Notes under the pieces: generated by a model
Seen by the model: the letters and a program-made list of their open reading frames with translations, nothing else
The model's database searches: none
What the model was told of the DNA's origin: nothing
Part shown: in pieces, positions 17,826 to 64,000 of the stretch
Numbering within the stretch: position 1 is the stretch's first letter
How the letters are laid out: every line of letters begins with the position of its first letter
Program-made: the position numbers and the translations under genes
Assembly: GCA_036346225.1 (NCBI GenBank)
Contig: JARFIW010001110.1
Span: forward strand, 682,001 to 746,000
Length of the DNA stretch: 64,000 bases
Reading direction: 5' to 3'
Origin: Platerodrilus igneus
Lineage: Eukaryota; Arthropoda; Insecta; Coleoptera; Lycidae

Positions 17826-17829
17826 ATAG

Positions 17830-27355: not shown

Positions 27356-27439
27356 TCAAAACCTCTTTCCCCCTGAATCCCTCATTCCCCCCACACATCT
27401 GGACCAAATAGTTTTCTTTGACTAGCCATTTTCATCTTT

Positions 27440-27735
27440 CGAGATAAATATATCTTGTTTGGTATCAATTAACAATAGATTTTTCTTAGCTACCCGAATC
27501 TCTAGGAATTTTTTAGTTTGCATCACCCCCAGGGAGCTACCCTCATTTTAAGATTTCTTTACCGCTAACATTCTGAACCAAACAATTTTCTTCGTCTAAC
27601 CAATGCGTCTTTTAAGCTAAACCTATCTTGTTTGGTATCAATTAACAATAGAATTTTCTCGGCTATCTGAATTTTTAGGAATTTTCAGATAGCATCATCC
27701 CCCAGGGAGCTACCCTGATTTTAAGATTTTTTACC
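27440..27735 (-). repeat. outer-end repeat units of element Z, copy 1
   Basis: Two head-to-tail partial units sharing TTGTTTGGTATCAATTAACA and AGGGAGCTACCCT. Related pieces lie at 27,770-27,870, 29,365-29,480 and 31,280-31,400. See also 59,075-59,935. Confidence 0.7.
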
Positions 27736-28544
27736 TGTTGCGATTTTTGAGCGTTCTTATAAATTTTTTTAACCACGTGATACATCAAATTAGTCGAAAA
27801 TTTTACGCAGAATTCGAATCTGCAAACAGATTTGCAATAGGATCACCCCTTACAAAGTTATACACCTTTAAAGTAAGACATATGCTTTAACCAAACACTT
27901 AGAGGTACTAACCCAAAGAAATTAAGCACGCAAAAATTTAATAATTTATTTTATCCGATTTACAGTTTAATAAACTAATTAGAATTCTTACAACGTATAA
28001 CATTATTTTCTTTGTTTAACCAAATCCAAGCAGGTTAAAGTAACCTGTAACAAAAAATAGAAATTAATGTGTTGTGTAAAAAAGACCTATAACAAAAAGA
28101 GATTAATGTACTGTTTAATAAGAGCGGAAAAGTGTTTTAGGTCAATAAGACATATTGTCGTTAATCTAACAATATGAGAATAATGTAAAAACATTACAAT
28201 GTAATGTGTTTTTAATATGGTTGACCTTAACGTCATCATCGCTCCGAACTACATGTGAAAGCTGTATATAATTTCTTTTTAAAAGTGTATATCTTCTCTA
28301 AACAAATACGTTAATTACAGGAAGAAAGTACGCTAAATGCGAGTTAATTAATAGCAATTTAATACAGCTTACTGACCTACCTTAATTGTTTGTACAAGGA
28401 AACACAATAAAATATATACAAATATAGCAACTATCTTATATATTTAAGCCCCATGCGTAGGTTGCTGTACTATTAGGAATGTACCTTTTATCGTCCTCGC
28501 CCGACAAACTAATTTTATTAATTAATTGGATATAAAGTTGGTGT

Positions 28545-29183
28545 TTACATGGTTTCGTTTACGACCTCGTACATATTTTCCAGATTACTAGAAGACGTTA
28601 TAACCATATTTTTTGTGTTAAAGTATTTCACATCGGTAGTCTTTTCCCCCATTTTGGTGTAAACACCGTAGAGTTCGCAATAGACTTTTATTGCTGTATG
28701 TTGTATTCTTTTTTAATTAATTAATCGAATAAATCACTCTTTCTGCTTCCATACGGTTGTTAAACGCAGTGCTAACAATTTCTACACCATCGTCGCTAGT
28801 AGCGGTAACTGATGCATTTTTATGTTTGTTGCTCCGTAGATAACCAGGGTATGCAGACTTTAACACCTCCATGTCGCACACTTACACATGATTCGTGGTT
28901 GTTTCGTACAGTTTCGTAAAGTCCCTTTAACAGCTGGCGGAGCTAAACGTTTACGGCTTAATGACATACGTTGCTGTTTTTTTTTGTGACGCTGTAAGCT
29001 GTCCAATCTCGTAAAAGCGATACCGGAAGACCCACAGTTTAAGTACTTTGCTGCGGACGGATTTATAAGCTTAACCGTCGACGATGTTACAACACGACAT
29101 TTGTTCTGGTGCAGCTTGAGAGCATTTTTCCAGGTATAGGAAGCACCGAAAAAGTTGCATTTAAAAACGTTTGCAGATACCAT
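28545..29183 (-). pseudogene. element Z zinc-finger/polymerase-N-like gene, copy 1
   Basis: Same gene as 60,608-61,312, in a more decayed state. The ATG at 29,183 follows a conserved upstream frame (GTG-initiated in the open frame). The first finger has lost its second cysteine (reads CNFFGAS). The second unit keeps CGSSGIAF and the LQRHKKKQQ helix. Downstream, shifted frames keep LRSNKHKNASVTAT, then ELYGVYTKMGE and YFNTKNMVITSSSNLENMYE, ending at a stop near 28,545. Frameshifts occur near 28,860 and 28,700. Confidence 0.55.
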
Positions 29184-29219
29184 TTTAGTACAAAGCAAAA
29201 TCCGCACTATAGGACTTTG

Positions 29220-30470
29220 GTTAAACTTGTAAGCGAACTACTTTATAACTAAAAAGTTTACTCCTGCGTACCTGCTTTATGTACCCTATAAAATGCAAAC
29301 CGAAGGTTTCCGAAGACGGCCGAACGATGTTGGGGATTCAGCGGGCAGCAATTTCCGACCTTCCTTAAAAATTTTTTTAGTTATGCAATACATCAAACTA
29401 GCCTAGAATTTTACGCAGAATTCGAATCTGTAAACAGATTTAAAATAGGACTACTCTTTACAAAGTTACACTTTAAAGCTCCCAAATCCCTTTAAAATTT
29501 TTGTTTATTTATGACATATGCTTTAACCAAACATGTCCAAAAGAATTAAAAACGCGAAAGTTTTAAAATGAGTCCTTTATGGCCCATAAGTGTTTAATTT
29601 TCAAAACCATGATTCTTAAAATTTTAAAAACAGTTATCAATTTTCTGGTTTAACATTTTTAATAACTATGCACCTCATAATTATATAGTCAATGCTTGGA
29701 AAATACAAGTAGTTCCGAATTAATTTCTTAACGATTATGGGCTACCTAAATTACATATGAAAGCTGTATATTATTTCTTTTCTTGGACTTTCTATTAATT
29801 ATGTTTGTGCATTAAAATTGATGTATAATTGCCGGGGATTCACACAAGGTACTTTCTAGCAACCATCCTCGACTACCTATTTAGGGAAATACAAATTTTA
29901 AATAAACACTTTAAACCTTTACTAAGGGAATACCAACTTGTTGTCTACAGGATACTTACTAATAAAGCAATTTAATTTTAAATAACTTCTATGTCATATT
30001 TTCGGAGAATGGTAGGCTTGAATATTTTCTTTGGAAACAATCAGAGATTGCCGAAGACACTCGAAGAGTGCACAAACGGGGTCACTAAACCAATTAGCAT
30101 TAATACCAAATATTCCGTACTTTCGTAGGTATGTTCATTTCCTAGAACTAAATCTTCCGCGTAGCGGTCGGTATCACGGAATGATTTCTAGAATCGGTAA
30201 GTACTCGATATTACCCAAATAGAGAATTAAATGCTCGATTTCTGTCAACTTCCGATTCCGTCGTAAAAGGTAGAAAAACTCGGTCAATCATTCATCTAAC
30301 TTAAACTTCGACCCGCTCCCGTTCTGATAATTTCCAAACATTTTTCAAACGACAATGGTTTCAGAATATTTAAACCTCCGAGGGATCTATAAGTCGTGAT
30401 CAATTACACGTTCGAGCTACCCGTAAACTAACAGTGTGCAGTATAATACATGCATACCCCTTCTCTGCGC
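29220..30470. other. element Z interior, mostly non-coding
   Basis: Inverted counterpart of roughly 39,180-39,880. Contains a partial outer-end repeat (29,365-29,480) and, near 30,180-30,285 on the minus strand, a degraded paralogue of the small ORF at 31,667-31,897 (words TESEVDRNRAFNSLFG). Confidence 0.45.
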
Positions 30471-30475
30471 TACTG

Positions 30476-30751
30476 TTATTCTTGTAGTTGCTTGAAAAAG
30501 TCAGTCGCCTTTTTTACTGTTAGGACCGCTGCAAAGCACCATTCTATACTTTCTTTAAAGGTATAGCACATCGCGCACTTTTTTTGCCTGACAACTAAAT
30601 TTTGCTTATGTAGGCTTTTACAGTTTCGAATAGTTAAACATCTAATACGATCAATTAACCACTTTCGATAATTCCACCGAGAACCACCATATATTCTGCT
30701 GCACCATTCTTTTTGAATCCAACGATCCGATGGGCTTCCACACACTAACAC
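30476..30751 (-). pseudogene. element Z unknown small ORF (CxxC), copy 1
   Basis: Open for 91 codons, ending QKKCAMCYTFKESIEWCFA, then VKKATDFFKQLQE. The CAMC pair with a later cysteine could bind metal. Homologous but broken copies lie at about 38,933-39,172 (plus), 62,525-62,780 (minus) and 62,045-62,200 (minus). Conservation of the same frame in several copies suggests it was once coding, perhaps as the C-terminal part of a longer protein. Function unknown. Confidence 0.4.
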
Positions 30752-31666
30752 CTAACGTATCTTTCCTACTATTTGTTAAACAAAAACTACCGGCATCGCC
30801 ATGTCCGTATACGGACGGAAGCAGATGTTGGTGGATGTGTACGAGAATATGTAACCATATACATTAATCAGTCTAAGCTATTTTATTTAGTTGAAGAAAA
30901 CTACTAATTTTCTAAAACCACAATAATAATAGCCTTTATAGGTTTAACATTTCTACCATTTCCCAATGACTGGTGCTACGTACATGGAAACTTTAATTTC
31001 TTATTGGAGAGAATCCTTATTCTCCCACGCACTGCTGCGTAGTTGCACGCCCACCCCTTTTGAAAATATATGCTCGTTATAGGTTGTAAGACCCTCGGCT
31101 TTACTTAACTACACTTTGTGGGACCCTTTAATCTTTTTTAATCGTCTTTTTTGCTTACAATACAATAGGACTTGGCTTTTGTACCAACGAATTCTAACAC
31201 TAGCACCCCATTAAATTCGTCTTTGAATTTCCCTACAACTTTTTTGTTGACAAGCGGTATATTGTATTTATTATCCGCGGGGTAGTCACTCTTTTAAGCT
31301 AAATATATCTTTTTTTGGTATCAATTAATACTAGATTTTTCTAGGGAGCTCAAATCAGCAAATAGATTTTAAATAAAACCACGCTTTACAAAGTCACGCC
31401 TTATAAAGACCCAAACCTCTAATTTTTACCCATCTTTATTTAACTCCATCTCTAAAACCCTTTTTTCGTTACCCAAGACATATGCTTTAACCAACCAGTT
31501 CCCTAGAAATTTAAAACCGATGTGTCCAGCAAACACCACGTGGAGATAACACGTATACTCTGACCACCTGGATGGAAGCAGGAAGGATTTGGAAGGTGGG
31601 CAAAGAAATTAAAAATTATGGAATTTAAAAACTAATATATACAATAGATTTACAAAATCAAAACAA

Positions 31667-31897
31667 CTATCTTAGATTTATTTCAGTATGCCCCTCATGC
31701 GTAGATTGATATGCTTCCAGGACGATGTTACGCTTGTCATCTTCGTTCGATAAACTAATTTTACTAATAATCTGTGTGTACAAATCGTGCTTTTTACTCC
31801 GGATACATACACCGGCAAGTATTCGATACCATCCAAATAAAGAATTAGATGCTTGGTGACTATTAACTTCCGCATCCCTCGTGTACGCCCCAGACAC
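31667..31897 (-). pseudogene. element Z unknown small ORF, copy 1
   Basis: 76 codons: begins MSGAYTRDAEVNSHQASNSL, has a FGWYRILAGVC segment and ends with LYTQIISKISLSNEDDKRN. The same frame is open in the right arm (37,785-38,000), and the last segment is related to sequence just downstream of the zinc-finger gene (for example near 28,500-28,540). A second frame over the same bases (31,678-31,917) is also open and partly conserved, so the true reading is uncertain. Confidence 0.35.
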
Positions 31898-32044
31898 TTC
31901 CCTGGTGGTGATGTCATAGCCTTTTATAAATAAAGAGCAATGTAATACTATTCTAAAATTTTTATTCTGACATTATACATAACAAATTTTAAAAAAAATG
32001 TAATGCCAAGCATGGAGCCATTTAAACTTAATTTTAATACAAAG

Positions 32045-34371
32045 CTATACACAGAAGACAGTCCTTTCTTTATGTTTGTTTGGGGCGGTTTTAATTTTAT
32101 CTAATTTTATTCGCAGCTTAAAATTTAAATCGACACCCAAGTCCTCTATCTCCTTTCCTAGCCAATAATTTGATACATAGAGACCGTCTAGGTTTTCGAA
32201 TTGCCAAATGTGCCGAAGTTTGCCTCTCTATATAAAGTCCTTGATTCCACCGACAACCAGATCCATTCCTTCGTGTAATTCTTGCAGCTTGTGACAATTT
32301 TTTAATCGCGGCTCTCCCACTATATCCTGCATACGTATCTGGTTAGCTTGATCGACTTTTTCTTGTTGAAATTGGAGGAAATCCTTATTCTCCCACTCAC
32401 TGTTGCATAATTGCATGTCCACCACTTTTGGAAATATATGGTTGTTATAGGTTTTAAATGAACTGAAAGGTTCTTTACTAGGCAAATATACAATGTTTAT
32501 CTGAACCCCTTTGCGTGTGGTGTACACCAAGGTTACGAAACCTGCATTCCTTAGTTCGTTTTTGTTATCTGCCATTTTGATAAATACGTTTTTAGAATAA
32601 CCTTTTAAAAAGTATACGGGTTTAGTATCATCTTTCTCCGCAAGAACGCCTACATAACTAAATGAGTCTTTCTTACTAACCGCAAATGCATATAGCTTGT
32701 AGATCCCGGATGTATTTAAGTCAGTCCATCGACACATAAAATAATCTTTTAATTCTTCCTCATTTTCTCTAATAAGATGTTCTTTGTCTAACACATCTTT
32801 GAATTGTTCGCGTATTGTCGCAGTGTTTTCCATGTAGTCCAACTTTCGCTTTTTTGCATCCATTTCCTCTAATTCCAGTTGTTCTTTTCTTCCACTTACA
32901 GTGTATGGTATGCATAATGAGGCAATTTCCTTTAGCGTAAACGGATAGAGTTTACTGCCAATACTTACGCGAGTTATGTATCCCTCAATTGTAGAATATG
33001 GTGTTGCAGATTGTGTAAAATATGTACTACCTGCTTTAATGTAGCACTTGTGTAAGATTTTTATTTTATCTTGGCTATCTTCCTCCTCTACTATCTCCAA
33101 ATAATTTACAGGTAAATAGTTAAAACTAAAAGCCGAAAGCACATACTTTATCAATTTTTTCCTTTCCTCTGGTTTTTCGGACAACCTAATTTGCAAGCAC
33201 GTCAATTTCTTTGTTTTGCCATTACCCCAATACACGTACTGTAGCAGGTTATTATACACTAAACAGCAGCTATTTTGTAGCTTGGCCGATACCTTATTCC
33301 ACATTTTCCAGTGGTACCGGTACATTGGCGCCTTTAGGAAGTATAACACTATCTTCCAATAAGGTTAAACAGTCTTTTAAGGTTTATACACCGTTCCACG
33401 ACATACTTCAATTGCCATCTAACTTGACTCACTTACTCAACAGTTGTATATTGTCGCTTCCAATCGTGTAATACCATGTTCTTTGGCCAAAGTAGACGCA
33501 AAGTTTCCCTTAAACGTACATCTGGACAACGTAAAAAATCTAGTATATGATTGCCAAGTTGTTTATTAACACCAGGACTTGTTATCTGACACACAAATTT
33601 GTTGTATATCTTAATACTTGCATTGATTGTTAGCCATGTTAAATAATCAATTCCCTCAGTTTTATCGTTGTCAAATATAATATTACACTTTTCTTCGTAT
33701 TCTCCCTTATAGCATTAGTTATGCTTTGTAGTTAAATAATTACACATCTCCATCTTGCTAAATATGCCAGCAAAATCTTGGGTTACATCCATGTCAAAAA
33801 TATAGAAATAATCTTTTTCGAGTTCGTCTAATATATCGGGTAGTTCCTCCAATAACGTTTCCAACTTAACATCTGCTAGTTCCACTTTGTATGGAACACA
33901 TATAGGATTTCGCAATTTTTTATTAATACAATGAAGGTCTTTTTTTCCGATAATTTCTTTTACTGCCTGACCCATCTTGTTAGCGCTTTCCAGAGAAAAC
34001 GGAAGCTTAGCTTTAACACCATGTCTAGCGGAAACAAATCGGTCGAACTTTCTTCGTAGATAGCTGTTAAATGCACCACAAATTTTTTTTTTTGGGATAA
34101 ACATCCTTTTGTTTGCAGATGTTTGTTCGGCGTCAGAAAGGTCGCAAATTTTAACCAACATTATATTGTCACAAAATGGTTCTGTAATTGGTGTGTGTAG
34201 TCCACCAGTCAGCATCTGTGCGCCTTCGACATAACAAATATTACCAATATCTGTCACCAGATTATTGTTGCACATATTTTCTGCCAACAGCCATAATCCA
34301 AATCGCTCATTTGTTGGTTTCACTTTATTGCCAAGAAGTTGAGAAACGTGAATCACTTTGGAGACGCTCAT
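32045..34371 (-). pseudogene. element Z Rep-like protein gene, copy 1
   Basis: From the ATG at 34,371 the first 218 codons are open (MSVSKVIHVSQLLGNK...), with DMDVTQDFAG at residues 193-202. A stop follows, then the same frame goes on through IKIYNKF (near 33,620). After a one-base shift comes GITRLEATIYN (near 33,455-33,475). A 373-codon frame (33,349-32,228) then carries a charged, coiled-coil-like stretch (MDAKKRKLDYMENTATIREQ) and the C-terminal region. A premature TAG at 32,228 precedes the expected end (32,045). Paired D-x-D, Y-N-K and R-x-E motifs recall Rep_trans-type rolling-circle initiators. I saw no clear HUH motif, so this is an inference. About 70 bp present in copy 2 are missing after TPYSTI. 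Confidence 0.5.
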
Positions 34372-34379
34372 GTTTACCG

Positions 34380-34592
34380 TTCTAGCTACTGTCGAATTCT
34401 AAATTCAATACGAAAAAATTGTTCTCTTATGTATCCTACAGAGTGGGGGCGTATATTGCCGAAGATAATCGAATATGTCGGACACCATCATATCGCTTAC
34501 ATTCTCTGGTTTAGGAACAGTTTTGTTATCCGACCTAGGCCGGCAGGGATGCGCATCGACATATGTCCGGATATATGTAGGATGTTAGGTTA
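34380..34592 (-). promoter_or_regulatory. upstream region of Rep-like gene, copy 1
   Basis: Conserved in all three terminal regions. Contains GATGCGCATC, a CCGACCTAGG palindrome core and CATATGTCCGGATATATG, which are short palindromes between the iteron array and the gene start. It likely holds the promoter and/or origin-proximal sites; this is inferred from position only. Confidence 0.4.
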
Positions 34593-34706
34593 GGGTGAAA
34601 TTGCACCATAGGGTGAAATTGCCCCATAAGGTGAAATTACCCCATAGGGTGAAATTGCCCCCATAGGCAATTGCCCCATGGGTGAAATTACCCATAGGGT
34701 TAAATT
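34593..34706 (-). repeat. iteron-like 18-bp tandem array, copy 1
   Basis: About six degenerate head-to-tail units of CACCCTATGGGGCAATTT (read on the minus strand), each with a CCCTATGGGG near-palindrome. Mirror image of 34,925-35,058. Confidence 0.8.
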
Positions 34707-34924
34707 GGCTCGATCTGGGTTGGAGGCGGACTTGTCAGGAGTTAGGTTAGCTGGTGTTGTCTGGTGTTAGGTTAGGGTTGGTTGGACTTGTGTGGACTTG
34801 GGTTAGATAAAGGGAAAATTTTTCTAACCAATTCCACAGCAAGTCCAACTAACTAACCTAAACAGACAACACTGGCTAACCTAACTCCTGACAAGTCCGC
34901 ATCCAACCTAGATCGGAGCCAAGT

Positions 34925-35058
34925 TCACCCTATGGGGTAATTTTACCCTATGGGGCAATTCCACCCTATGGGGGCAATTTCACCCTATGGGGTAATTTCA
35001 CCCTATGGGGCAATTTCACCCTATGGGGCAATTTCACACTATGGGGCAATTTCACCCT
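34925..35058 (+). repeat. iteron-like 18-bp tandem array, copy 2
   Basis: Seven units close to CACCCTATGGGGCAATTT at a steady 18-19 bp spacing, best preserved of the three arrays. Tandem sites of this length beside a Rep-like gene and a terminal hairpin resemble replication-initiator binding sites. Confidence 0.85.
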
Positions 35059-35072
35059 AACCTAACATCCTA

Positions 35073-35120
35073 CATATATCCGGACATATGTCGATGCGCA
35101 TCCCTGCCGACCTAGGTCGG
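35073..35120. promoter_or_regulatory. cluster of three palindromes beside the iterons
   Basis: CATATATCCGGACATATG (35,073-35,090, one mismatch pair), GATGCGCATC (35,093-35,102) and CCGACCTAGGTCGG (35,107-35,120, perfect). The same three lie, in mirror order, at about 34,530-34,580 and again at about 63,822-63,870. Conservation across arms points to function in replication or transcription. Confidence 0.6.
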
Positions 35121-35278
35121 ATAACAAAACTGTTACTAAACCAGAGAATGTAAGCGATATGGTGGTGTCCGACATATTCGACTATCTTCGGCAACATACA
35201 CCCCCACTCTGTAGGATACATAAGAGAACAATTTTTTCGTATTCAATTTAGTATTCGACAGTAGCTAGAACGGTAAAC

Positions 35279-37635
35279 ATAAGTGTCTCCAAAGTGATTA
35301 ACGTTTCTCAACTTCTTGGGAATAAAGTGATACCGACAAATGAGCGATTTGGATTATGGCTGTTGGCAGAAAATATGTGCAACAATAATTTGGTGACAGA
35401 TATTGTTACGTCGAAGGCGAACAGATGCTGACTGGTGGACTACACACACCAATTACAGAACCATTTTGTGACAATATAATGTTGGTTAAAATTTGCGACT
35501 TTTCTGACGCCGAGCAAACATCTGCAAGCAAAAGGATGTTTATCCTAAAAAAAGAAATTTGTGGTGCATTTAACAGCTATCTACGAAGAAAGTTTGATCG
35601 ATTTGTTTCCGCTAGGCATGTTGTTAAAGCTAAGCTCCCGTTTTCTCTGGAAAGCACTAACAAGATGGGTCAGAGAGTAAAAGAAATTATCGGAAAAGAA
35701 GACCTCGAATGCATTAATAAAAAATTCCAAAATCCTATATGTGTTCCATACAAAGTGGAACTAGCAGATGTTAAGTTGGAAACTTTATTGGAGGAACTAC
35801 CGGATATATTAGACGAACTCGAAAAGATTATTTCTATATTTTTGACATGGATGTAACCCAAGATTTTGCTGGCATATTTAGCAAGATGGAGATGTGTAAT
35901 TATTTAACTACAAAGCATAACTAATGCTATAAGGGAGAATACGAAGAAAAGTGTAATATTATAGTTGACAACGATAAAACTTCGGGAATTAATTATTTAA
36001 CATGGCTAACAACCAATGCAAGTATTAAGATATACAACAAATTTGTGTGTCAGATAACAAGTCCTGGTGTTAATAAACAACTTGGCAATCATATAGTAGA
36101 TTCTTTACGTTGCCCAGATGTACGCTTAAGGGAAACTTTTCGTCTACTTTGGCCAAAGAACATGGTATCACGCGATTGAAAGCGACAATATACAACTGTG
36201 CAATTGGAAGCTATGTCAGTGCGGAACGGATGTATAAACCCTTAAAAGACTGTTTAACTTCATTGGAAGATAGTATGTTATACTTCCTAAAGGCGCCAAT
36301 GTACTCGGTACCACTTGCGAAAATGTGGAGTAAGCTATCGGCCAAGCTACAAAATAGCTGCTGTTTAGTGTATAATAACCTGCTAAAGTACGTGTATTGG
36401 GGTAATGGCAATACAAAGAAATTGACGTGCTTGCAAATTAAGTTGTCCGAAAAACCAGAGGAAAGGAAAAATTGATAAAGTATGTGCTGGCTTTAGTTTT
36501 AACTATTTACCTGTAAATTATTTGGAGATAGTAGAGGAGGAAGATAGCCAAGATAAAATAAAAATCTTACACAAGTGCTACATTAAAGCAGGTAGTACAT
36601 ATTGTACACAATCTGCAACACCATATTCTACAATTCCAAAAGAAATAGTCATTTCGGAATTGGGGTTGATAGATACGCCTAACATTCGTCCAGAGGTTGT
36701 ACGACAACGCGTAAATATTGGCAGTAAACTCTATCCGTTTACGCTAAAGGAAATTGCCCCATTATGCATACCATACACTGTATGTGGAAGAAAAAGACAA
36801 CTGGAATTAGAGGAATTGGATGCAAAAAAGCGAAAGTTGGACTACATGGAAAACACTGCGACAATACGCGAACGATACAAAGATGTGGTAGACAAAGAAC
36901 ATCATATTAGAGAAAATGAGAAAGAATTAAAAGATTATTTTATGTGTCGATGGACTGACTTAAATGCATCCGGGATCTACAAGCTATATGCATTTGCGGT
37001 TAGTAAGAAAGACTCATTTAGTTATGTAGGCGTTCTTGCGGAAAAGGATGGTACTAAATTCGTATACTTTTTAAAAGGTTATTCTAAAAACGTATTTATC
37101 AAAATGGCAGATAACAAAAACGAACTAAGGAATGCAGGTTTCGTAACCTTGGCGTACACCACACGCAAAGGGGTTCAGATAAACATTGTATATTTGCCTA
37201 GTAAAGAACCTTTCAGTTCATTTAAAACCTATAACAACCATATATTTCCAAAAGTGGTGGACATGCAACTATGCAACAGTGAGTGGGAAGAATTAGGATT
37301 TCTTCCAATATCAACAAGAAGAAGTCGATCAAGCTAACAAGATACGTATGCAAGATATAGTGAGAGAGCCGCGATTAAAAGATTGTCACAAGCTGCAAGA
37401 ATTACACGAAGGAATGGATCTGGTTGTCGGTGGAATCAAGGACTTTATATATAGAGGCAAACTTCGGCACATTTTACATTTCAAAAACCTAGACGGTCTC
37501 TATGTATCAAACTATTGGCTAGAAAAGAAGATAGAGGACTTGGGTGTCGATTTAAATTTTAAGCTGCGAATAAAATTAGATAAAATTAACACCGCTCCAA
37601 ACAAACATAAAGAAAGGACTGTCTTCTGTGTATAA
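35279..37635 (+). pseudogene. element Z Rep-like protein gene, copy 2
   Basis: Counterpart of 34,371-32,045. The start codon reads ATA (35,279-35,281). A 10-bp deletion near 35,404 and a one-base loss in an A run near 35,825 break the first part. It shares with copy 1 the stop after the KHN segment (near 35,924) and the one-base frameshift near 36,135. In the R-x-E motif the glutamate is lysine (GITRLKATIYN, near 36,170). 36,522-37,337 is open and includes a segment missing from copy 1. After another shift, 37,348-37,635 carries the C-terminus ending TVFCV. Overall length would be about 780-800 codons. Confidence 0.5.
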
Positions 37636-37704
37636 CTTTGTACTAAAATTAAGTTTAAATGGCTCCATGCTTGGCATTACATTTTTTTTTTAAATTGTGT
37701 TATG

Positions 37705-37730
37705 TATAATGTCAGAATAAAAATTTTAGA
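37705..37730 (+). terminator. polyadenylation signal after the Rep-like gene
   Basis: AATAAA about 80 bp past the Rep-like stop codon; the mirror copy has it near 31,963 on the minus strand. Confidence 0.45.
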
Positions 37731-37784
37731 ATAGTATTACATTGCTCTTTATTTATAAAAGGTTATGACATCACCACCAGGGAT

Positions 37785-38000
37785 GTGTCTGGGGCGTACA
37801 CGAGGGAAGCGGAGGTTAATAGTTACCAAGCATCTAATTCTTCATTGTATCGAGTACTTGCCGGTGTATGTATCCGGAGTAAAAAACACGATTTGTACAC
37901 GCAAATTATTAGTAAAATTAGTTTATCGAGCGAAGATGACAGGCGTAACGTCATCCCTGGAAGGTTATCAACCCATGCACGGGGGGGCATAAAGATGTAA
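37785..38000 (+). pseudogene. element Z unknown small ORF, copy 2
   Basis: 71 codons, homologous in frame to 31,667-31,897 (MSGAYTREAEVNS, later KKHDLYTQIISKISLS). Two codons of the FGW segment are altered by a small deletion. An overlapping 75-codon frame (37,765-37,992) is also open. A TATAAAA word lies just upstream near 37,753. Confidence 0.35.
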
Positions 38001-38004
38001 ATCT

Positions 38005-39880
38005 AAGATAGTTGTTTGATTTTGTAAATCTATTGTATATATTAGTTTTAAGATTCCATAGTGTTTAAGTTCTTCTCCCACCTTCCAAATCCTTCCTGCT
38101 TCTATCGTGGTTGACAGAGTATACGTGTTATCTCCACGTGGTGTTCGCGGGGTACATCGGTTATAGATTTCTAGGGGAATGGTTGGTTAAAGCATATGTT
38201 TGGGTAGCGAAAAAAAGTTCTAAGGATGTAGTTAAATAAAGATGGTGCAAAAATTAGAGATTTGGGGTCTATATAGTGTAACTTTGTAAGAGGTGGTTCT
38301 ATTTAATATACATTTACAGGTTTGGGGTCCCTAGAAAAATCTAATATTAGTTGATACCAAAAAAAAGATATATTTATCTTAAAAGAGTGACTACCCCTCA
38401 GATAATAAACACAATATACCGCATGTCAACAAAAGTTGTATCGAAAATTAAAGACGAATTTAATGGGAATCTAGTATTATAACTTGTTGGTAGTAGGACT
38501 AAGCCCTACTCTACTGTAAGCGAGAAAGACACAATCAAAAAGATTAAAGGGGTCTCACAAAGTGTAGTTAAGTAAAACCGAGGGTCTTGCAACCTATAAC
38601 GAGCATATATCCCCAAAAGGGGTAGGCATGCATCTAAGCAGCAGTGCGTGGGAGAATAAGAATTCTCTCCAATAAGAAATTAAAGTTTAGCACTAGTCAT
38701 TGGGAAATGGTAAAAATGTTAAACCTATAAAGGCGATTATTAATTGTGGTTTATAAAAATAGTAGTTTTCGTGGACTAAATAAAATAGCTTAGACTGATT
38801 AATGTATATGGTTACATATTCCCGTACACATCCTCAAACATCTGCTTACGTCCACATACGGACATGGCGATGCCGGTAGTTTCTGTTTAACAAATAGTAG
38901 GAAAGATACGTTAGGTGCTAGTGTGTGGAAGCCCATAGGATCGTTGAATTCAAAAAGAACAGCGCGGCGGAATGTATGGCGGGTCCCGTTAGAATAATCG
39001 AAAGTGGTTAATCGATCGTATTAGATGTTTAAATATGCGAAAGTGTAAAAGCCAAAATTTAATTATCAGACAAAAAAGTGCGCGATGTGCTATACTTATA
39101 AATAAAGTATGAAATGGTGCTTTGCATCGGTTCTAGCAGTAAAAAAGGCGACTGACTTTTTCTAGCAACTATAAGAATAGCAGTAGCGCGGAGAAGGGGT
39201 ATGTATGTATTATATAGCGCACTGTTACGATAAAATATGTTAGTTTACGGGTATCTCAAACGTGAACAAATTAAATTTTAGTCTATAATTAACCGCGGTC
39301 GTAAAAATGAGAAATTAATGTTTAATTTTAATGCCGCTAAGCATATACTTGTGCTTGGTGATTTATTTAGAAAATATTCAAGCCTACCATTTCCTAAAAT
39401 ATGACATAGAAGTTATTTAAAGTTAAATTGTTTTATTAGTAAGTATTCTGTAGACAGCAATTTTGGTATTCCCTTAGTAAAGGTTTAAAGTGTTTTTATT
39501 AAGTTTTTGTTTATAGTAGCACTGCATCTTCTACAGCACGACTTGCATCCAATTTGGGCACGTGTGCTACCACCCTTTTGGATTTGTATTATGACACAAT
39601 GTGATTATTGATCCGTATAACATGGATGACGTTTTCGGTGTTTCTGCTAACTGCATTCGCAGCATGAACAAAGTGAACCGGGCGCATACATTTGTGCTAA
39701 ATGTACTGAACGAGCAGCAAGGATTGGCAAAAGATAACGTGATTTAGTTCCCCGCTGAATCCTCAACTTCGTTCGACTGTCTTCGAAAACCTTCGGTTTG
39801 CATTCTATAGGGTACATAAATCATGTACGCAAGAGTAAGCTTTTTAGTTATAAGTTAGTTCGCTTACAAGTTTCGCAAAA
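38005..39880 (+). other. element Z interior with remnant of the CxxC ORF
   Basis: Mostly non-coding. A partial outer-end repeat lies at 38,200-38,400. A broken copy of the CxxC ORF lies at about 38,933-39,172 (words KKCAMCYTYK, VKKATDFF with stops between). Confidence 0.4.
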
Positions 39881-39912
39881 GCCCTATAGTGCGGATTTTG
39901 TTTTGTACAAAA

Positions 39913-40440
39913 ATGGTACCTGCAAACGTTTCTAAATGCGAGCCCTGTCGCGTCTACTTTACCAGGAGGAATGCTCTCAAACGGCACCACAACAAATGTC
40001 GCGGTGTAACATCGTCCAGGGTTATACATCCATCAGCAGCAAAGTACTTAAACTGTGGGTCTTGCGGTATCGCTTTTACGAGAATGGACAGCTTACAGCG
40101 ACACTAGGAAAAACAGCACAGTATGTCATTAAGCCGTAAACGTTCAGCTCCGCCAGCAGTTGAAGAGCCTTCTCCAAAGCAGTCACGGATTCTGTGTAAA
40201 GTGTGCGACATGGAGGCGTTAAAGTCTGCATATCCTGATCATCTACGGAGCAACAAACATAAAAATGCATCAGTTACCGCTACTAGCGACGATGGTGTAT
40301 AAATGGTTAGCACTGCATTTAACAACCGTATGGCTAGCTATCGCATTAAGAACACCAGTGTCGACGATGCAGTGTCCAAGTTTCTTTGGAAGCAGAAAGT
40401 GCGATTTATTCGATTAATTAATTAAAAAAGAATACAACAT
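39913..40440 (+). pseudogene. element Z zinc-finger/polymerase-N-like gene, copy 2
   Basis: ATG at 39,913. First finger CEPCRVYFTRRNALKRHHNKC keeps C-x2-C and a histidine helix. The second unit keeps CGSCGIAFTRMDSLQRH, then a stop. Shifted frames continue with MCDME-like and LRSNKHKNASV segments. The region matching the polymerase-N-like block in copies 1 and 3 is deleted at about 40,452, where the sequence jumps to TTTGTCGGGCGACG. Confidence 0.5.
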
Positions 40441-41459
40441 ACAGCAATAAAAGTCTACGTTTGTCGGGCGACGACGACAAAAGGTACATCATTCCTAATA
40501 GTACAGTAACCTACGCATGGGGTATAAATATATAAGATAGTTACTATATTTTATTGTGTTTCCTTGTACAAACAATTAAGGTAGGTCAGTAAGCAGTATT
40601 AAATTGCTATTAATTGACTCACATTTAGCGTACTTTTCTACTGTAATTAGCGTATTTGTTTGGAGAAGATATACACTTTTAAAAAGAAATTATATACAGC
40701 TTTCACATGTAATTCGGAGGATGATTACGTTAAAGTCGACCTTCCCATTTACATATTAAAAACACATTACATTGGAATGTTTTTACATTATTCTCATATT
40801 GTTAGATTAGCGACAATATGTCTTATTGACCGAAAACACTTTTCCGCTCTTATTAAACAGTACATTAATCTCTTTTTGTTATAGGTCTTTTTTAAACAAC
40901 ACATTAATTTCTATTTTTTGTTACAGGTTACTTTAACCTGCTTGGATTCGGCTACACTAAGAACATAATGTTATACTTTGTAAAAATCGTAATTAGTTTA
41001 TTAAACTGTAAATCGGATAAAATAAATTAGTAAACTTTTGTGTGCTTATTTCTTTGAGTTGGTTAAAGCATATGTCATAGATGGGCAAAAAATTTAGAGG
41101 TTTGAGAGCTTTAAAGGGGTATAACTCTGCAGGGCGTGATCGGATATTAAATCTGTTTACAGAGTCGGATTCTGCGTAAAATTTTAGACTAATTTGATGT
41201 ATCGCTTGACTAAAAATATGTTTAAGGATTGTCAGGTAAGAAATATTAAAATGAGGGTAGTTCCCTAGGGGATGATGCTATCTGAAAAATTCCTAAAAAT
41301 TCAGATAGCTGAGAAAATTCTAATATTCATTAATACCAAACAAGATAGGTTTATCTCGAAAGATGCATTGGTTAGATGAAGAAAACTATTTGGTTCAGAT
41401 GTAGGAGGAAATGAGGTGCTCATTTATCTCGAAAGATGAAAATGGCTATTCGAAGAAAA

Positions 41460-41589
41460 CTGAGATTCATCTCCACATTTCCTCTTAGGAAATTCATCTC
41501 CACATTTCCTCCTTATGGGAATTTACATGTAAATTTGGTCCAGATGTGTGAGGAAATGTGGGATTCTGGAGGAAATGTGGCGGCAGGAT
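41460..41589 (+). repeat. outer end of element Z with inverted CCACATTTCCTC words
   Basis: Two copies of CTCCACATTTCCTC (near 41,470 and 41,501) face two copies of GAGGAAATGTGG (near 41,550 and 41,570), so the end can fold into a hairpin. Copy 3 has the same words at 58,960-59,000. Confidence 0.55.
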
Positions 41590-42054
41590 TGCCATATTCC
41601 TCCTACTGACCAATTTACTTTCCAGTCAGTTGGTTTCGTATAACTACATATCTGACAGGTGATTAATACTATGGCTCTAATTACTTACCTTTCAGTTATC
41701 AAATTGTTCAGTATTCCATAACAATAGCATTGCTGCGTCTTTTAGAAGAAAACAAAAAACGGTAGCTGTTATCATCTTTCATGAAGCTAATTGCAGTTGT
41801 CGCGTTACTTGACGAATATTCAATGAACGTTTTCCACAATGGCCAGCACGTGGAGCACTTTTCAAAAACTGTTGTCAAAATTTCTAACAATAAGGACTGT
41901 GAAAAACATGTAAAAACATGTAAAAAAATTCAGCATTGGAAATGGTGTATAAGCATAGGTCTCAGCTGAAATGAATGTTAATCTCCATCAATCTACAATG
42001 GAAGTATTGAATACATGTAATGCTTCTTGTTTGTTAGTAAAGAAACATTTCAAA
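41590..42054. other. flank between element Z and the mariner-like relic
   Basis: Short frames on both strands (41,708-41,890 minus; 41,781-41,969 plus) show no motif I know. Some of this may be the decayed N-terminal part of the transposase relic that follows. Confidence 0.35.
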
Positions 42055-42529: not shown

Positions 42530-42549
42530 AGTAGGTAAATAAGGCCGGT

Positions 42550-43317: not shown

Positions 43318-43383
43318 AAGTATGACAGATGCAAAAATATCGCATTCAAGTCAATTGTGTTTAATTAAAGTGGATTCTGATTT

Positions 43384-46390: not shown

Positions 46391-46395
46391 AAAGT

Positions 46396-51078: not shown

Positions 51079-51079
51079 T

Positions 51080-57865: not shown

Positions 57866-58953
57866 TTAACCCTCAATTTCATAAGAAAAAATTAAAAATG
57901 GCGTCCAGTATCAATCTGAAACATTCAACTGTTATATTCCTACTAAGAAATAGTAATTTTACTCTTATTAAACATCCCAAATTACACGGGAAGGGCTTTA
58001 GCCGTTCTAAAATTAGGGGGCTTTTGATCTTCACTGTATAGTTAGAACTAATTTTTCCAGAAGTATTTAAGCCCGGCATCAGTCGCTATATGATTTCTTG
58101 CAGCGTTAATCACGTGTTGACACTTTATGCCAAACTGCATTTTTCTAACAATGAGACTATTTTAGCAACGTATCGTGCTTGTTAATAACGAATTTTGATT
58201 ATTTAATCAAACTTTTTTTATATAGAAAATAATATAGGATTAACTGATCAAAAAATTATAATTTAAAAAAACAATGCGTACTTACAAATCAACAATTACC
58301 TATAGTTCAATACTACATAATTATATTATTTATATACTATTCTTTTTATTATTAGTTGTCCGAATTTCTGAAACTGACACTTAATTAGAGCAGGAATATG
58401 CTACATGATATTCTGAGGTTTTTTCTTCGAGGACACAAATAGCAAATATTCACTGAAATTTCTGATGGATGTTGTGAGCTTTCTGCGAATTGTTCTCTAA
58501 CAATTTTTCCAATGGAAGTACGTAATGATAATGACAAATTTCTTATATGTGCTCGATATATAAGGTGAGGTTTCATGAGCGAAAGAACCCATTGTTTAAG
58601 GAATATAGGGTTTTCTTGATGTGGTCCTTATTATTAGTTTTGTTTACCAATATTCAACATTGAAAAGTACACTGTCAGTGGCCATCTACAATTATTCTAG
58701 ACACTGAATACAGGTTAATTATTTCGTCAACAACATTTACTCCACCTTTTGTCAAATTGTAGAATGTAATAATCCCAGATTTTGTTTGTTTCGTTGAATC
58801 TTCAACAATCGCGTCGATGTTGTGCATAGTAGACAAAAGTAAAACATTTTTCGCTTTTCTAGGCACATGTGATACAGGTACGGCATCTTTAAAAAAAACA
58901 AATATACTACTATGTCACGGTTGGTGAGTGATGTTAGTAGTGCATTTTTACAG
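57866..58953 (-). pseudogene. piggyBac transposase relic and 3' end
   Basis: Minus-strand blocks: VPRKAKNVLLLSTMHNIDA, then IITFYNLTKGGVNVVDEI and NLYSVSR (58,675-58,866), which is the part of the piggyBac catalytic core holding its last aspartate. Then LIYRAHIRNLSLSL and a cysteine-containing tail CYLCPRRKN (58,385-58,576) in place of the usual C-terminal Cys-rich domain. At the outer end TTAA (57,866-57,869) is followed by CCCTCAATTTCATAAG, as expected for a TTAA target and a CCC-start terminal repeat. The N-terminal half is absent because element Z copy 3 begins at 58,954. Frames are broken by stops. Confidence 0.75.
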
Positions 58954-59074
58954 ATCCTGTCGCCACATTTCCTCCAGCATCCACATTTCCTCACACATTC
59001 TGGAACAAATTTACATGTAAAATTGCACTATAAAGTCTTATTTTAAAGAAATCTCCGCCTTGCTCTCCGCCTTG

Positions 59075-59935
59075 CTCGGATCTCAGCTACCCGAATTTCT
59101 AGGAATTTTTTAGATAGCATCACCCCCCAGGGAGCTACCCCAAATATTAAAATTTTTGTACCGCTAACTTTCTGAACCAAATAGCTTTTTTCGCCAAGCC
59201 ATTTCCACCGACGAGATAAATATATCTTGTTTGATATCAATTAATATAAGATTTTCTCAGCTACCAAAATCTTTAAGAATTTTTTAGATAGCACCATCCC
59301 CCAGAGAGCTACCCTCATTTTAAGATTTTCTACCGGAAACGATTTCTGACAATCCTTAAACATTTTTTAAACATGCGACATATCAAATTAGTCTAGAATT
59401 TTACGCAGAATTTGAATCTGCAAACAGATTTAAAATAGGACCACCCCTTACAAAGTTACACATATACCCTCTGCGAGATAAATCTTTCTCCACATTTCCA
59501 CCCACGAGATAAATCTATATTGTTTGGTATCAATTAATATTAGAATTTTCTCAGCTACCCGAACCTTTAGGAATTTTTTAGATAGCATCATCTTCCAGGG
59601 AGAATCTCTCATTTTAAGATTTTTACCGGAAGCGATTTCTGACAATCCTAAAACATTTTTTAAACATGCGACATATCAAATTAGTCTAGAATTTTACGCA
59701 GAATTTGAATCTGCTAACAGATTTAAAATAGAATCACCCCTTACAAAGTTACACATATACCCTTTGCGAGATAAATCTTTCTCCACATTTCCACCCACGA
59801 AATAAATCTATATTGTTTGGTATCAATTAATATTAGATTTTTCTCAGCTACCCTAATCTCTGAGAATTTTTTAGATAGCATCATCCCCCAGGGAGCTACT
59901 CTCATTTTAAGATTTTTTACTGGCAGCGATTTCTA
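59075..59935 (-). repeat. 293-bp tandem repeat at element Z outer end
   Basis: Three to four units; the word TTGTTTGRTATCAATTAATA starts at 59,227, 59,520 and 59,813, an exact 293-bp period. Each unit includes AGGGAGCTACC-like and ATTTTACGCAGAATTTGAAT words. Confidence 0.85.
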
Positions 59936-60607
59936 ATCATCTCTCCTTTCTAATATCTAGAATCCTTTAACCAAACACTTAACGGTATAAACACAATTAA
60001 ATTAAGCACGCAAAAGTTTAATAATTTATTTTATCCGATTTACAGTTTAATAAACTAATAGAATACAATTTTTACAAAGTACAACATTATCTTCTTAGTG
60101 TAGCCGAATCCAAGCAGGTTAAAGTAACCTGTAACAAAAAAGGCAGTAATGTGTTTAAAAATACCTATAACAAAAAAGAGATTAATGTGCTGTTTAAAAA
60201 GAGAGGAAACGTGTTTCGGTCAATAAGACATATTGTCGTTAATCTAACAATATGAGAATAATGTAAAACATTCTAATGTAATGTGTTCTTAATATGTAAA
60301 TGGGAAGGTCAAGTTTAAAGTAATCATCGCGCGAATTACATGTGAAAGTGGTGTATAATTTCTTTTTAAAGGTGTATATCTTCTCCAAACAAATACGTTA
60401 ATTACATGAGGAAAGTACGCTGAACACAAGTTAATTAATAGCAATTTAATACTGCTTATTGACCTACCTTAATTGTTTGTACAAGGAAACACAATAAAAT
60501 ATATACAAATATAGCCACTATCTTATATATTTATGTCCTATGCGTAGGTTGCTGTACTATTAGGAATGATGTACCTTTTGCCGTCCTTGCCCGACAAACT
60601 AATTTTA

Positions 60608-61312
60608 TTAAGTAATTGGGTATAAAGTTGATGTATACATGGTTTCGTTTAAGACCTCGTACATATTTTCCAGATTACTAGAAGACGTTATAACCATATT
60701 TTTTGTGTTAAAGAATTTCACATTGGTAATCTCTTCTCCCATTTTTGTGTAAACGCCGTAGAGTTCGCAATTAACTTTTATTGCTGTATGTTGTATTCTT
60801 TTTTCATTAAGTAATCGAAAAAACCGCTCTTTCTGCTTCCAAAGACACTCCGACACTCCATCGTCGACACTGGCGTTCTTTATGCTATAGCTAGCCATAC
60901 GGTTGTTAAACGCTGCGCTAACCATTTCTACGCCATTTTTGCCAGTAGCGGTAACTGTGGCATTTTTATGTCTGTTGCTTCTCAAGTGTGCGGCATAGGT
61001 AGTCTTTTCCATTTCGAAATCGCATACTTTACACATAATTCGTGGTTGTTTCGTACAAGACTCTTTAACAGCTGGCGGAGCTGAACGTTTACGGCTTAAT
61101 GACATACCATGCTGTTTTTCCTTGTGTCGCAGTAAAAGCGTAAAAGCGATACCGCAAGACATACAGTTAAAGTACTTTGCTGCTGACGGATGTATACGCT
61201 TAACCCTGAAGGATGTTACACCATGACATTTGTTCTGGTGTCGTTTCAGAGAATTTTTCCAGGTATAGGAAGCACTGCAAGAGTTGCATTTAAAAGCGTT
61301 TGCAGGTACCAT
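60608..61312 (-). CDS. element Z zinc-finger/polymerase-N-like protein, best copy
   Basis: Open from the ATG at 61,312 for about 234 codons (the open frame extends 8 codons upstream to a GTG). Order: C2H2-like finger CNSCSASYTWKNSLKRHQNKC; second unit CMSCGIAFTLLLRHKEKQH; basic stretch SRKRSAPPAVKE; third unit CKVCDFEMEKTTYAAHLRSNRHK, a full C-x2-C with HX5H; AAFNNRMASYSIKN; then KVNCELYGVYTKMGEEI and VKFFNTKNMVITSSSNLENM. The last block resembles that in the Polinton gene at 49,369-49,658. Here the protein stops early (TLYPIT), without a polymerase domain. Probably a truncated DNA-binding front of a polymerase protein, or a stand-alone derivative of it. Confidence 0.6.
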   Translation of the reverse strand: MVPANAFKCNSCSASYTWKNSLKRHQNKCHGVTSFRVKRIHPSAAKYFNCMSCGIAFTLLLRHKEKQHGMSLSRKRSAPPAVKESCTKQPRIMCKVCDFEMEKTTYAAHLRSNRHKNATVTATGKNGVEMVSAAFNNRMASYSIKNASVDDGVSECLWKQKERFFRLLNEKRIQHTAIKVNCELYGVYTKMGEEITNVKFFNTKNMVITSSSNLENMYEVLNETMYTSTLYPIT

Positions 61313-61449
61313 TTTAGTACAAAACAAAATCCGCACTATAGGACTTTGGTTAAACTTGTAAGCGAACTAACTTATAACTAAAGAGTTTACTTTAGCGTAC
61401 CTGATTTATGTACCCTATAGAATGCAAACCGAAGGTTTCCGAAGACAGC

Positions 61450-63340
61450 CGAACAAAGTTGAGGATTAAGCGGAGAATTAAATCACGTCATTGCCAATCC
61501 TTACTACTCGTCCAGTACATTTAGCACCAATGTATGCGCCCGATTCGCTTCGTCCATGCTGCGAATGCAGTTAGTAGAAACATCGGAAACGTCTTCCATG
61601 TTATACGAATCAGCAATCGCATCGCGTGCATATTAAAAATCCAAAAGGGTGGTAGCACACGCACACAAATTGGTTGCAAGTCGTGCGGTGGAACATGCAG
61701 TGCTACTGTACGCAAAAACTTAATAAAACACTTAAAACCTTTACTAAGGGAACACCAAACTTGTGGTCTACAGAATATTTACTAATAAAGCAATTTAATT
61801 TTAAATAACCTCTACGTCATATTTTCGGAAATGGTAGGCTTGAATATTTTCTAAATGAATCGCTAAGCGAAAGTATATGCTTAGCGGCATTAAAATTAAC
61901 CATTAATTTCCCATTTTTCGACCGCGGTTAATTATAGATTAAAATTTAATTTGTTCACGTTTGAGCAACCCGTAAACTGACATATTTTATACTAACAGTG
62001 CGCTGTATAATACATGCATACACCTTCTCCGCGCTACTACTATTCTTGTAGTTGCTAGAAAAAGTCAGTCGCCTTTTATACTGCTAGGACCGACGCAAAA
62101 TACCATTTTATACTTTCTTTATAAGTACAGCACATCGCGCACTTTTTTGTCTGATAATTAAATTTTGCTTATGTAGGCTTTTACCCTTTCGCATAGCGGT
62201 CGGTAGCACGTAATGATTTCTAGAACCGGTAAATACTCGACATTGCCAAATAAAGAATTAGATGCTCGATGTCTGTCAACTTCCGATTCCCTTGTAAAAG
62301 GTAGAAAAAAACTCGGTCAATCATCCATCTAACTTAAACTTCGACCCGCTCCCGTTCTGATAATTTCCAAACATTTTTCAAACGACAATGGGCTCAGAAT
62401 TTTTAAACCTTCGAGGGATCTATAAATCGTAATCAATTACACGTTCGAGCTACCCGTAAACTAACAATGCGCTGTATAATACATGCATACCTCTTCTCTG
62501 CGCTACTGACATTCTTGTAGTTGCTTGAAAAGTCAGTCGCCTTTTTTACTGTCAGGACCGCTGCAAAGCACCATTCTATACTTTCTTTAAAGGTATTGCA
62601 TATCGCGCACTTTTTTGTCTGATAATTAAATTTTGCTTATGTAGGCTTTTACACTTTCGCATATTTAAACATCTAATACGATCGATTAACCACTTTCGAT
62701 TATTCTAACGGGCATCAGCATACATTGCGCCACACCGTTCTTTTTGAATACAACGATCCGATGAACTTCCACACACTAACACCTAGCGTATCTTTCCTAC
62801 TATTTGTTAAACAAAAACTACCGGCATCGCCATGTCCGTATACGGACGTAAGCAGATGTTTGTGGATGTGTACGATAATATGTAACCATATACATTAATC
62901 AGTCTAAGCTATTTTATTTAGTCCACGAAAACTACTATTTTTTAAATCACAATTAATAATCGCCTTTATAGGTTTAACATTTCTACCATTTCCCAAAGAC
63001 TGGTGCTACGTACATGGAAACTTTAATTTCTTATTGGAGAGAATCCTTATTCTCCCACGCACTGCTGCGTAGTTGCATGCCCACCCCTTTTGGGGATATA
63101 TGCTCGTTATAGGTTGTAAGACCCTCGGTTTTACCTAACTGCACTTTGTGAGACCCCTTTAATCTTTTTAATCGTATCTTTCTCGAAAACTTAAAAATTA
63201 TGGAATTTAAAAACTAATATATACAATAGATTTACAAAATCAAACAACTATCTTAGATTTATATCTTTATGCCCCCATGCATGGGTTAATATACTTCCAA
63301 GGATGACGTTACGCTTGTAATCTCCCTTTCTAGTCAATAG
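61450..63340 (-). other. element Z copy 3 interior with ORF remnants
   Basis: Broken remnants of the small ORF (words TRESEVDRHRASNSLFG near 62,230-62,300 minus) and of the CxxC ORF (about 62,045-62,200 and 62,525-62,780 minus). A plus-strand frame of 83 codons (61,534-61,785) overlaps them and is probably chance. Confidence 0.4.
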
Positions 63341-63344
63341 TTTG

Positions 63345-63545
63345 ATACATAGAGAGGTCTAGGTTTTCAAATTGCAAAATGTACCAAAGTTTGTCTCTAT
63401 ATATAAAGTATTTGATTCCACCGACAACCATATCCATTCCTTCGTGTAATTCTTGCAGCTTGTGACAATCTATTAATCGCAGCTTTCCCATTATATCCTG
63501 CATACGTATCTTGTTAGCTTGATCGACTTCTTCTTGTCGGTATTG
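63345..63545 (-). pseudogene. element Z Rep-like gene, 3' remnant, copy 3
   Basis: Minus strand matches 37,330-37,500 of copy 2 (RMQDI, KLQELHEGMDMVVGGIK-type segment). Cut at about 63,545, next to the terminal hairpin. Confidence 0.6.
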
Positions 63546-63557
63546 AAGAGGGCCCTT

Positions 63558-63627
63558 ATAAAAGGAAACATTGATAGGTTAGGTCAGCGACGCCGCGCTG
63601 ACCTAACCTATCAATTTTTCCTTTTAT
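63558..63627. repeat. element Z terminal hairpin
   Basis: Arms of 32 bp (63,558-63,589 and 63,596-63,627) with a single mismatch, loop ACGCCG. Inner arm TTGATAGGTTAGGTCAGCG. Sits exactly where two element arms meet head to head, so it reads as a dimer junction formed from a hairpin end. Confidence 0.85.
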
Positions 63628-64000
63628 CTAACCTAAGTCCACACAAGACCAACTAACCTAACCTAACTCCGGACAACACTAGCTAACCTAACTCCTGACA
63701 AGTCTACATCCAACCTAGTTCGGAGACAATTTCACCCTATAGGGTAATTTCACCCTATGGGGCAATTTCACCGTATGGAGCAATTTCACCTTATGGAGCA
63801 ATTTCACCCTAGCCTAACATCCTACATATATCCGGACATATGTCGATGCGCATCCCTGCCGACCTAGGACGGATAACAAAACAGTTCCTAAACCAGAGAA
63901 TGTAAGCGATATGGCGGTGTCCGACATATTCGACTATCTTCGGTAATATACGCCCCCATTCTGTAGGATACATAGGTGAACAATTTTCTCGTATTCAATT
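63596..64000 (+). mobile_element. element Z, start of a fourth arm, runs off window
   Basis: Matches 34,819-35,255 in the same orientation: terminal region, iteron array (63,727-63,812), palindrome cluster and upstream region of the Rep-like gene. The gene start would lie about 20 bases beyond the window edge. Confidence 0.8.
63727..63812 (+). repeat. iteron-like 18-bp array, copy 3
   Basis: About five units of the CACCCTATGGGGCAATTT type, some with GGAGC in place of GGGGC. Confidence 0.8.

What the first reader, a model, noticed from the sequence alone, without database searches (positions are those of the whole stretch)
27358..41589. Head-to-head inverted dimer of an unrecognised virus-like element (element Z)
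Two ~7-kb copies meet at 34.82 kb with their iteron ends touching. They carry an ~800-codon Rep-like gene, small conserved ORFs and a zinc-finger protein with a polymerase-N-like block. I know no described element with this gene set and a hairpin tip. Head-to-head dimers are the usual product of copying through a covalently closed hairpin end.
Basis: partly seen in the sequence, partly recalled or inferred. Interest (0 to 1): 0.9.

Follow-up and report, generated by a model that had tools for sequence, protein, structure and literature searches.

The report
Insect mobile element with hairpin tip
A high-copy, probably insect, mobile DNA element ends in a hairpin and seems to carry a replication enzyme of a type so far described from bacteria and archaea, which may be why its copies often lie head to head.

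Summary
Two arms of about 7 kb meet head to head at 34.83 kb; a second head-to-head pair starts at 58.94 kb and runs past the window end. The arms are diverged and carry indels, so this is no trivial assembly duplicate. The Rep-like gene matches 109 scored places in the 2.7-Gb genome, 13 of them in an open frame of 803-804 codons. Beside the iterons lies a palindromic hairpin tip (GGTTAGGTCAGC-8 nt-GCTGACCTAACC). Its far half persists in 25 of 34 tips fetched, also in 11 of the 14 with no element sequence beyond. Two loop sequences occur in both orientations. In 22 of 40 scored tips an inverted, usually truncated second arm follows.

The Rep-like protein matches no Pfam model. A confident model of its core (pLDDT 93) has the bacterial Rep_trans initiators RepDE and RepSTK1 as Foldseek's five best PDB hits, and conserved Tyr, Arg/Lys and acidic residues fall on the corresponding strands; fold scores are modest. 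Relatives occur in aphids, a psyllid, a planthopper, a mealybug and a grasshopper. A zinc-finger protein resembles the N-terminal part of polinton polymerase, without a polymerase.

Best reading: a new class of eukaryotic hairpin-ended mobile element using a Rep_trans-like nickase. Virus status is not shown.

The parts
27358..34828 (+). Arm 1 of head-to-head pair 1, tail (27358) to tip (34828); genes on the minus strand
   Evidence: self-BLAST; alignment
34829..41607 (-). Arm 2 of head-to-head pair 1, tip to tail end
   Evidence: tail end shared with other copies
34757..34902 (.). Central palindrome of pair 1 (innermost hairpin lost; arms meet at ...GGGAAAA|TTTTTC...)
   Evidence: fold, z -9.1; sequence
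34591..34707 (-). 18-bp iterons, arm 1
34920..35059 (+). 18-bp iterons, arm 2
33718..34398 (-). Rep-like gene piece with CDNI and DxDxTQDF motifs (P0002)
33436..33714 (-). Rep-like gene piece with LTW...SIKIYNK motif
32231..33364 (-). Rep-like gene piece (P0003), 378 codons open
35389..37635 (+). Rep-like gene of arm 2, broken into several frames
28860..29237 (-). C2H2 zinc-finger protein, arm 1 (truncated)
39859..40107 (+). C2H2 zinc-finger protein, arm 2 (truncated); Pfam zf-C2H2 E 2.1e-5
27398..27864 (+). Tail repeat block, arm 1
58937..63556 (+). Left arm of head-to-head pair 2 (tip-proximal part deleted)
60608..61366 (-). Zinc-finger / polymerase-N-like ORF (P0001, 252 codons)
63558..63627 (.). 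Intact tip hairpin, 32-nt arms, 6-nt loop
63613..64000 (-). Start of right arm of pair 2; continues outside the window to equivalent 66859
63722..63811 (+). 18-bp iterons of pair 2

Best explanation
[not shown]
For: Core model pLDDT 93.4, pTM 0.90. Foldseek's five best PDB hits of 474 at E<=10 are RepDE 4cwc/4cwe and RepSTK1 4cij (three chains), prob 0.92-0.97, E 1.3e-3 to 5.7e-3. In BFVD the second hit is an Inoviridae G2P (E 1.3e-4, prob 0.99), after an unnamed protein. Strands S1, S6, S9, S10, S11 carry D61, D183/D185/D189, CLTW, R242-K244-Y246-K248 and E295. Conserved among sequences with a residue there: D61 33/34, D183 34/36, D185 35/36, D189 36/36, R242 37/38, K244 37/38, Y246 37/39, K248 37/39, E295 34/35. 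The published RepDE residues D46, D142, R189, Y191, K193, E214 sit on corresponding strands (PMC4797284 passages). Two genomic copies with a 795-residue frame keep these. Tip: at least 8 nt of the far half of the hairpin in 25 of 34 short tip loci, and in 11 of the 14 with no element sequence outside. Loops GTCGTCGC x4 and its reverse complement GCGACGAC x1; ACCGCCGC x3 and GCGGCGGT x1. Inverted element sequence beyond the tip in 22 of 40 tips, other orientation 3, none 14, unclear 1. dN/dS 0.41 among 17 open copies, median dS 0.073.
Confidence: 0.6

Rival explanations
1. [not shown]
For: L033/34 and L035/36 have near-identical TIRs (1.47 kb at 98.4%; about 4 kb at 98.7%, the outer 212 bp at 99.5%) with tails outermost. 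Short possible target duplications flank both (TCAGAAT, TATAAAA, each offset by 1-2 nt). Tails share a terminal sequence. Six of 8 larger copies have an inverted second arm of some length, a seventh possibly.
Against: L043/44 is a single arm whose 44-nt tip palindrome joins unrelated DNA, with no arm match of 120 columns or more in the 7.6 kb beyond; 14 of 40 tips show no element sequence beyond. One breakpoint lies at or within the hairpin in many copies while the other varies along the arm.
Confidence: 0.25
2. [not shown]
For: Hairpin terminus and head-to-head forms as in parvoviruses (PMC3087758, start of abstract seen in listing). A polymerase-N-like domain, as bidnavirus and polinton PolB share one (PMC4061559 passages). 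Multi-segment bidna-like viruses of flies exist (PMC8363768 passages). Full-length Rep relatives lie on short contigs (2.4-4.0 kb) tagged jgi, lgn or ena.
Against: No parvovirus NS1, helicase or polymerase core among Pfam matches of the pieces, relatives and ORFs scanned. No relative in IMG/VR viral contigs in 4 pattern-based scans. No capsid-sized conserved ORF besides Rep and the zinc-finger protein in four copies.
Confidence: 0.1
3. The palindromes are chance nested inverted insertions, local inverted duplications or assembly artefacts.
For: The window is rich in other inverted structures, for example 6.1-8.9 kb and 42.5-57.5 kb. L037/38 shows that other elements do nest in Z copies.
Against: Copies on many contigs share the same tip junction. 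Inverted against other orientation is 22 to 3 (binomial p 1.6e-4). Window arms are diverged with indels.
Confidence: 0.05

Closest known systems
Rep_trans (PF02486) rolling-circle initiators: pT181-family RepD/RepDE, RepSTK1, MOBT relaxases
   Same: TBP-like curved sheet with 11 strands in the model; putative Tyr in [R/K]-x-Y-x-K on strand 10; acidic residues on strands 1, 6 and 11
   Different: No profile match; about 795 residues with a long C-terminal half whose fold was not tested; found in insects; acts (inferred) at a hairpin end of a mobile element, not at a plasmid origin
Rep-Arvir of archaeal viruses (PMC13107129)
   Same: Also linked to Rep_trans only by predicted structure, with Tyr and acidic residues in place (passages)
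   Different: Archaeal; motif KHYYM, whereas here RxKIYNK is closer to the canonical YxxK context
Parvoviridae
   Same: Hairpin terminus, loop in two orientations (recalled for parvoviruses), head-to-head forms
   Different: Parvovirus NS1 has a rolling-circle endonuclease domain (HUH, recalled) and an SF3 helicase (PMC4061559 passages); neither found here, no capsid recognised, no shared tail hairpin
Polinton/Maverick and Bidnaviridae
   Same: A domain like the N-terminal part of polinton PolB (identified from recall) with C2H2 fingers
   Different: No PolB core, integrase or capsid recognised in what was scanned; bidnavirus ITRs do not form hairpins (PMC4061559 passages)
Helitrons (recalled, not compared by sequence)
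   Same: Eukaryotic element with a rolling-circle-type Rep
   Different: HUH Rep fused to a helicase; no such Pfam domains found here

Membership tests
Rep_trans (PF02486) | Match to the Pfam profile | tested here: not met
   no PF02486 row at E<=10 for 8 relatives, nor for 6 further relatives and 2 genomic Reps; window pieces at E<=1
Rep_trans (PF02486) | TBP-like catalytic fold | tested here: met
   [not shown]
Rep_trans (PF02486) | Catalytic Tyr in R-x-Y-x-K on strand 10 | tested here: met
   K244-I-Y246-N-K248 with R242, at model strand 241-247; position inferred from strand order, no residue superposition was computed
Rep_trans (PF02486) | Three acidic metal ligands on strands 1, 6, 11 | tested here: met
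   D61, D183/D185/D189, E295; same caveat
Rep_trans (PF02486) | Nicking with covalent Tyr-DNA link | not testable with these tools
   bench assay needed
Parvoviridae | NS1 with endonuclease and SF3 helicase domains | tested here: not met
   no such Pfam match in the pieces, relatives and Reps scanned
Parvoviridae | Hairpins at both termini | tested here: inconclusive
   tip yes; tail not shared
Parvoviridae | Jelly-roll capsid gene | tested here: inconclusive
   no further capsid-sized conserved ORF in four copies; no structure search on small ORFs, introns not considered
Bidnaviridae | Complete protein-primed PolB | tested here: not met
   only an N-terminal-like domain; the L045 ORF ends at ININKYKPI; no polymerase Pfam match
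Polinton/Maverick | PolB core, rve integrase, DJR capsid | tested here: inconclusive
   integrase found in the neighbouring Maverick-like element, not in the Z pieces and ORFs scanned; not every ORF was scanned
Helitron | HUH Rep plus helicase | tested here: not met
   no such Pfam match in the pieces, relatives and Reps scanned

The most novel reading that the evidence does not exclude
A new class of eukaryotic mobile element, spread through Hemiptera and Orthoptera, that replicates from a hairpin telomere with a Rep_trans-type (TBP-fold) nickase. It would be the first of that enzyme superfamily in eukaryotes, working with a stand-alone PolB N-terminal (terminal-protein-like) factor, and would be a rolling-hairpin replicon independent of the HUH nucleases.
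Probability: 0.55. Interest if true: 0.92.

Novelty: categorically new. Interest (0 to 1): 0.86.

Why it matters
[quoted passage not shown] A eukaryotic branch would show that two unrelated nickase folds (HUH and TBP-like) both gave rise to hairpin-ended replicons, and would add a class to the eukaryotic mobile-element catalogue. It also gives many intact and broken genomic copies in which hairpin replication and integration can be read from junctions, and a reason to re-examine 'uncharacterized' insect proteins.

Tried and rejected
Tail hairpin: arm 2's outer end folds (z -2.0, 6 of 200 shuffles as good), but other tails do not share it; dropped. Coding test by codon position between window arms: no clear overall signal. 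First structure job (P0009, 15 sequences): pLDDT 49.6, only weak ferredoxin-like matches; superseded. P0001 homologue search: none. Viral contig scans and prokaryote genome scans: none. Rfam: none. Target duplications: suggestive in two copies, not settled. Assembly artefact and chance inversion: disfavoured on arm divergence and repeated junctions. Paper searches; the listings showed no Rep_trans protein in a eukaryotic element, but the library lacks most subscription journals, Repbase was not searched, and two of the searches returned thousands of papers of which 20 and 10 were listed. A genome-wide pattern count of the tip palindrome, a P0001 genome search and a PF02486 genome search did not complete (tool busy). 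Failed scripts without result: error; wrong input; one search was a first dN/dS run that used 8 of 29 loci because minus-strand loci were not turned, replaced.
Full report
OBSERVATION. The window is a 64-kb piece (34% G+C) of a 2.71-Gb assembly with 1,723 contigs. Two inverted arms meet at ~34,828: 6,357 aligned columns at 89.9% plus outer pieces. Block by block the arms agree at 91-100% over most of the Rep half and mostly 75-99% towards the tail, with two poorly aligned stretches and indels; a simple duplicate made by the assembler should be near-identical. At the centre 18-bp iterons face each other. A second head-to-head pair starts at 58,937; its left arm has lost its tip-proximal part, its right arm begins at 63,613 and continues to window-equivalent 66,859. 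Between them stands an intact hairpin, 63558-63627, 32-nt arms, no shuffle as stable in 200.

COPIES ELSEWHERE. A window piece of the Rep-like gene (P0003) has 191 matches; 109 of 26,654 first-look candidates were scored, each with a match, the window's own included, so counts are lower bounds. Thirteen of the 109 places lie in an open frame of 803-804 residues, two of them flagged with a stop inside the match. I fetched eight larger copies, 8 of the 29 non-window loci, chosen for rank and open frames. Six of the eight show an inverted second arm of varying extent beyond the tip: L033/34 (1.47-kb inverted repeat, 98.4%), L035/36 (about 4 kb, 98.7%), L039/40 (112-nt palindrome, then inverted inner pieces), L041/42 (only the tip end of the second arm), L045/46, L047/48. 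In L037/38 an inverted tail block lies about 3.5 kb beyond the tip but within the span of another element's inverted repeats, so its belonging is uncertain. L043/44 is a single arm whose 44-nt tip palindrome joins unrelated DNA, with no arm match of 120 columns or more in the 7.6 kb beyond. Of four copies checked for ATG-started frames, two have a Rep of 795 residues (L033/34, L035/36) and in two it is in two pieces; zinc-finger ORFs run to 228, 200 and 260 residues in three, and a ~78-residue ORF downstream of Rep recurs in two.

THE TIP. A search with the window's half-tip scored 40 of 2,422 candidates. I fetched 321 bases around 34 of them; the other six were read and from copies already held. 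Beyond the hairpin centre, 25 of 34 keep at least 8 nt of the complementary half, up to 60 nt. Outside that, element sequence (recognised against five arms) continues in inverted orientation in 16 of 34, in another orientation in 3, none is found within about 260 nt in 14, and 1 is unclear. With the six others (inverted) this is 22 of 40. Eleven of the 14 without element sequence still carry the far half of the hairpin, so the hairpin is not merely a by-product of two arms meeting. The point where the second arm breaks off is spread along the arm, about 0.4 to 6.9 kb in 14 values on slightly different arm scales. A fixed pattern found an 8-nt loop in 27 of 39 tips (it missed L045, whose palindrome is visible). 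Nine loops are self-complementary; of the 18 others, two loops occur in both orientations (4 and 1; 3 and 1). This is what flip/flop would give if a hairpin is copied and re-formed, though the numbers are small. The 9-mer CTAACCTAA, like the insect telomere repeat TTAGG (recalled), occurs 10 times in the window, each at a Z tip, 0.74 expected.

SELECTION AND AGE. Among 17 copies with an open frame over the whole matched stretch (of 29 loci), dN/dS is 0.41 and median dS 0.073, lowest 0.004. The frame seems to have been used while the family spread, and some copies are young.

THE ZINC-FINGER PROTEIN. The version in L045 matches the ORF at 49296-49655 inside the Maverick-like element of this window (33% over 86 residues, E 6e-12); the window version P0001 matches weakly (E 0.008). 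That ORF has no Pfam hit; naming it the N-terminal part of PolB is from recall, helped by the rve integrase and chromodomain beside it. Bidnavirus and polinton PolB are described with a conserved N-terminal domain, proposed to act as terminal protein (PMC4061559 passages). In Z it stands alone, with C2H2 fingers.

HOW IT MAY WORK. Rep binds the iterons and nicks beside the hairpin; copying through the hairpin yields head-to-head DNA; molecules with a full, partial or no second arm enter chromosomes. The main rival is a transposon bounded by tails whose left inverted repeat changes length. It explains tail-to-tail copies well, but less well the single-arm copy and the hairpins that abut unrelated DNA.

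STANDING. It works like a hairpin-ended replicon; it is not filed as a parvovirus, bidnavirus, polinton or Helitron, since defining genes were not found in what was scanned. Its Rep is Rep_trans-like by fold and motif, and is not filed as PF02486, whose profile it does not match. Eight paper searches listed no report of such an element.

Noticed in passing
window 42530-57471: Maverick/polinton-like element with long inverted repeats, rve integrase (PF00665, E 9.2e-16), a weak chromodomain match and a PolB-N-like ORF; lies between the two Z pairs
   Followed up: partly
window 6115-8896: Inverted pair of tandem arrays with units of 144-145 bp, arms about 80% alike
   Followed up: no
window 34585-35065 and 63628-63691: CTAACCTAA, resembling the insect telomere repeat, occurs 10 times in the window and only at Z tips
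   Followed up: partly
P0013, P0015, P0030: Planococcus citri LOC135836840, 843 and 844, three Rep relatives with near-consecutive numbers on contigs of the same length, perhaps a cluster or inverted copies
   Followed up: no
P0045: Aphis glycines Rep relative with a precomputed PF13843 domain (piggyBac-type, recalled), perhaps an insertion or gene-model fusion
   Followed up: no
P0027: Rep relative of 785 residues on a 60-kb contig of a Baumannia MAG; probably insect DNA in the bin
   Followed up: partly
L045 around 7600-7680: Repeated ATTAATAGGTT units on the far side of the tip hairpin, as if the end had been copied several times
   Followed up: no
L037+L038, joined positions 9114-19789: Another element with 1.2-kb inverted repeats (99.9%) begins right at the Z tip hairpin and encloses a Z tail block
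   Followed up: no
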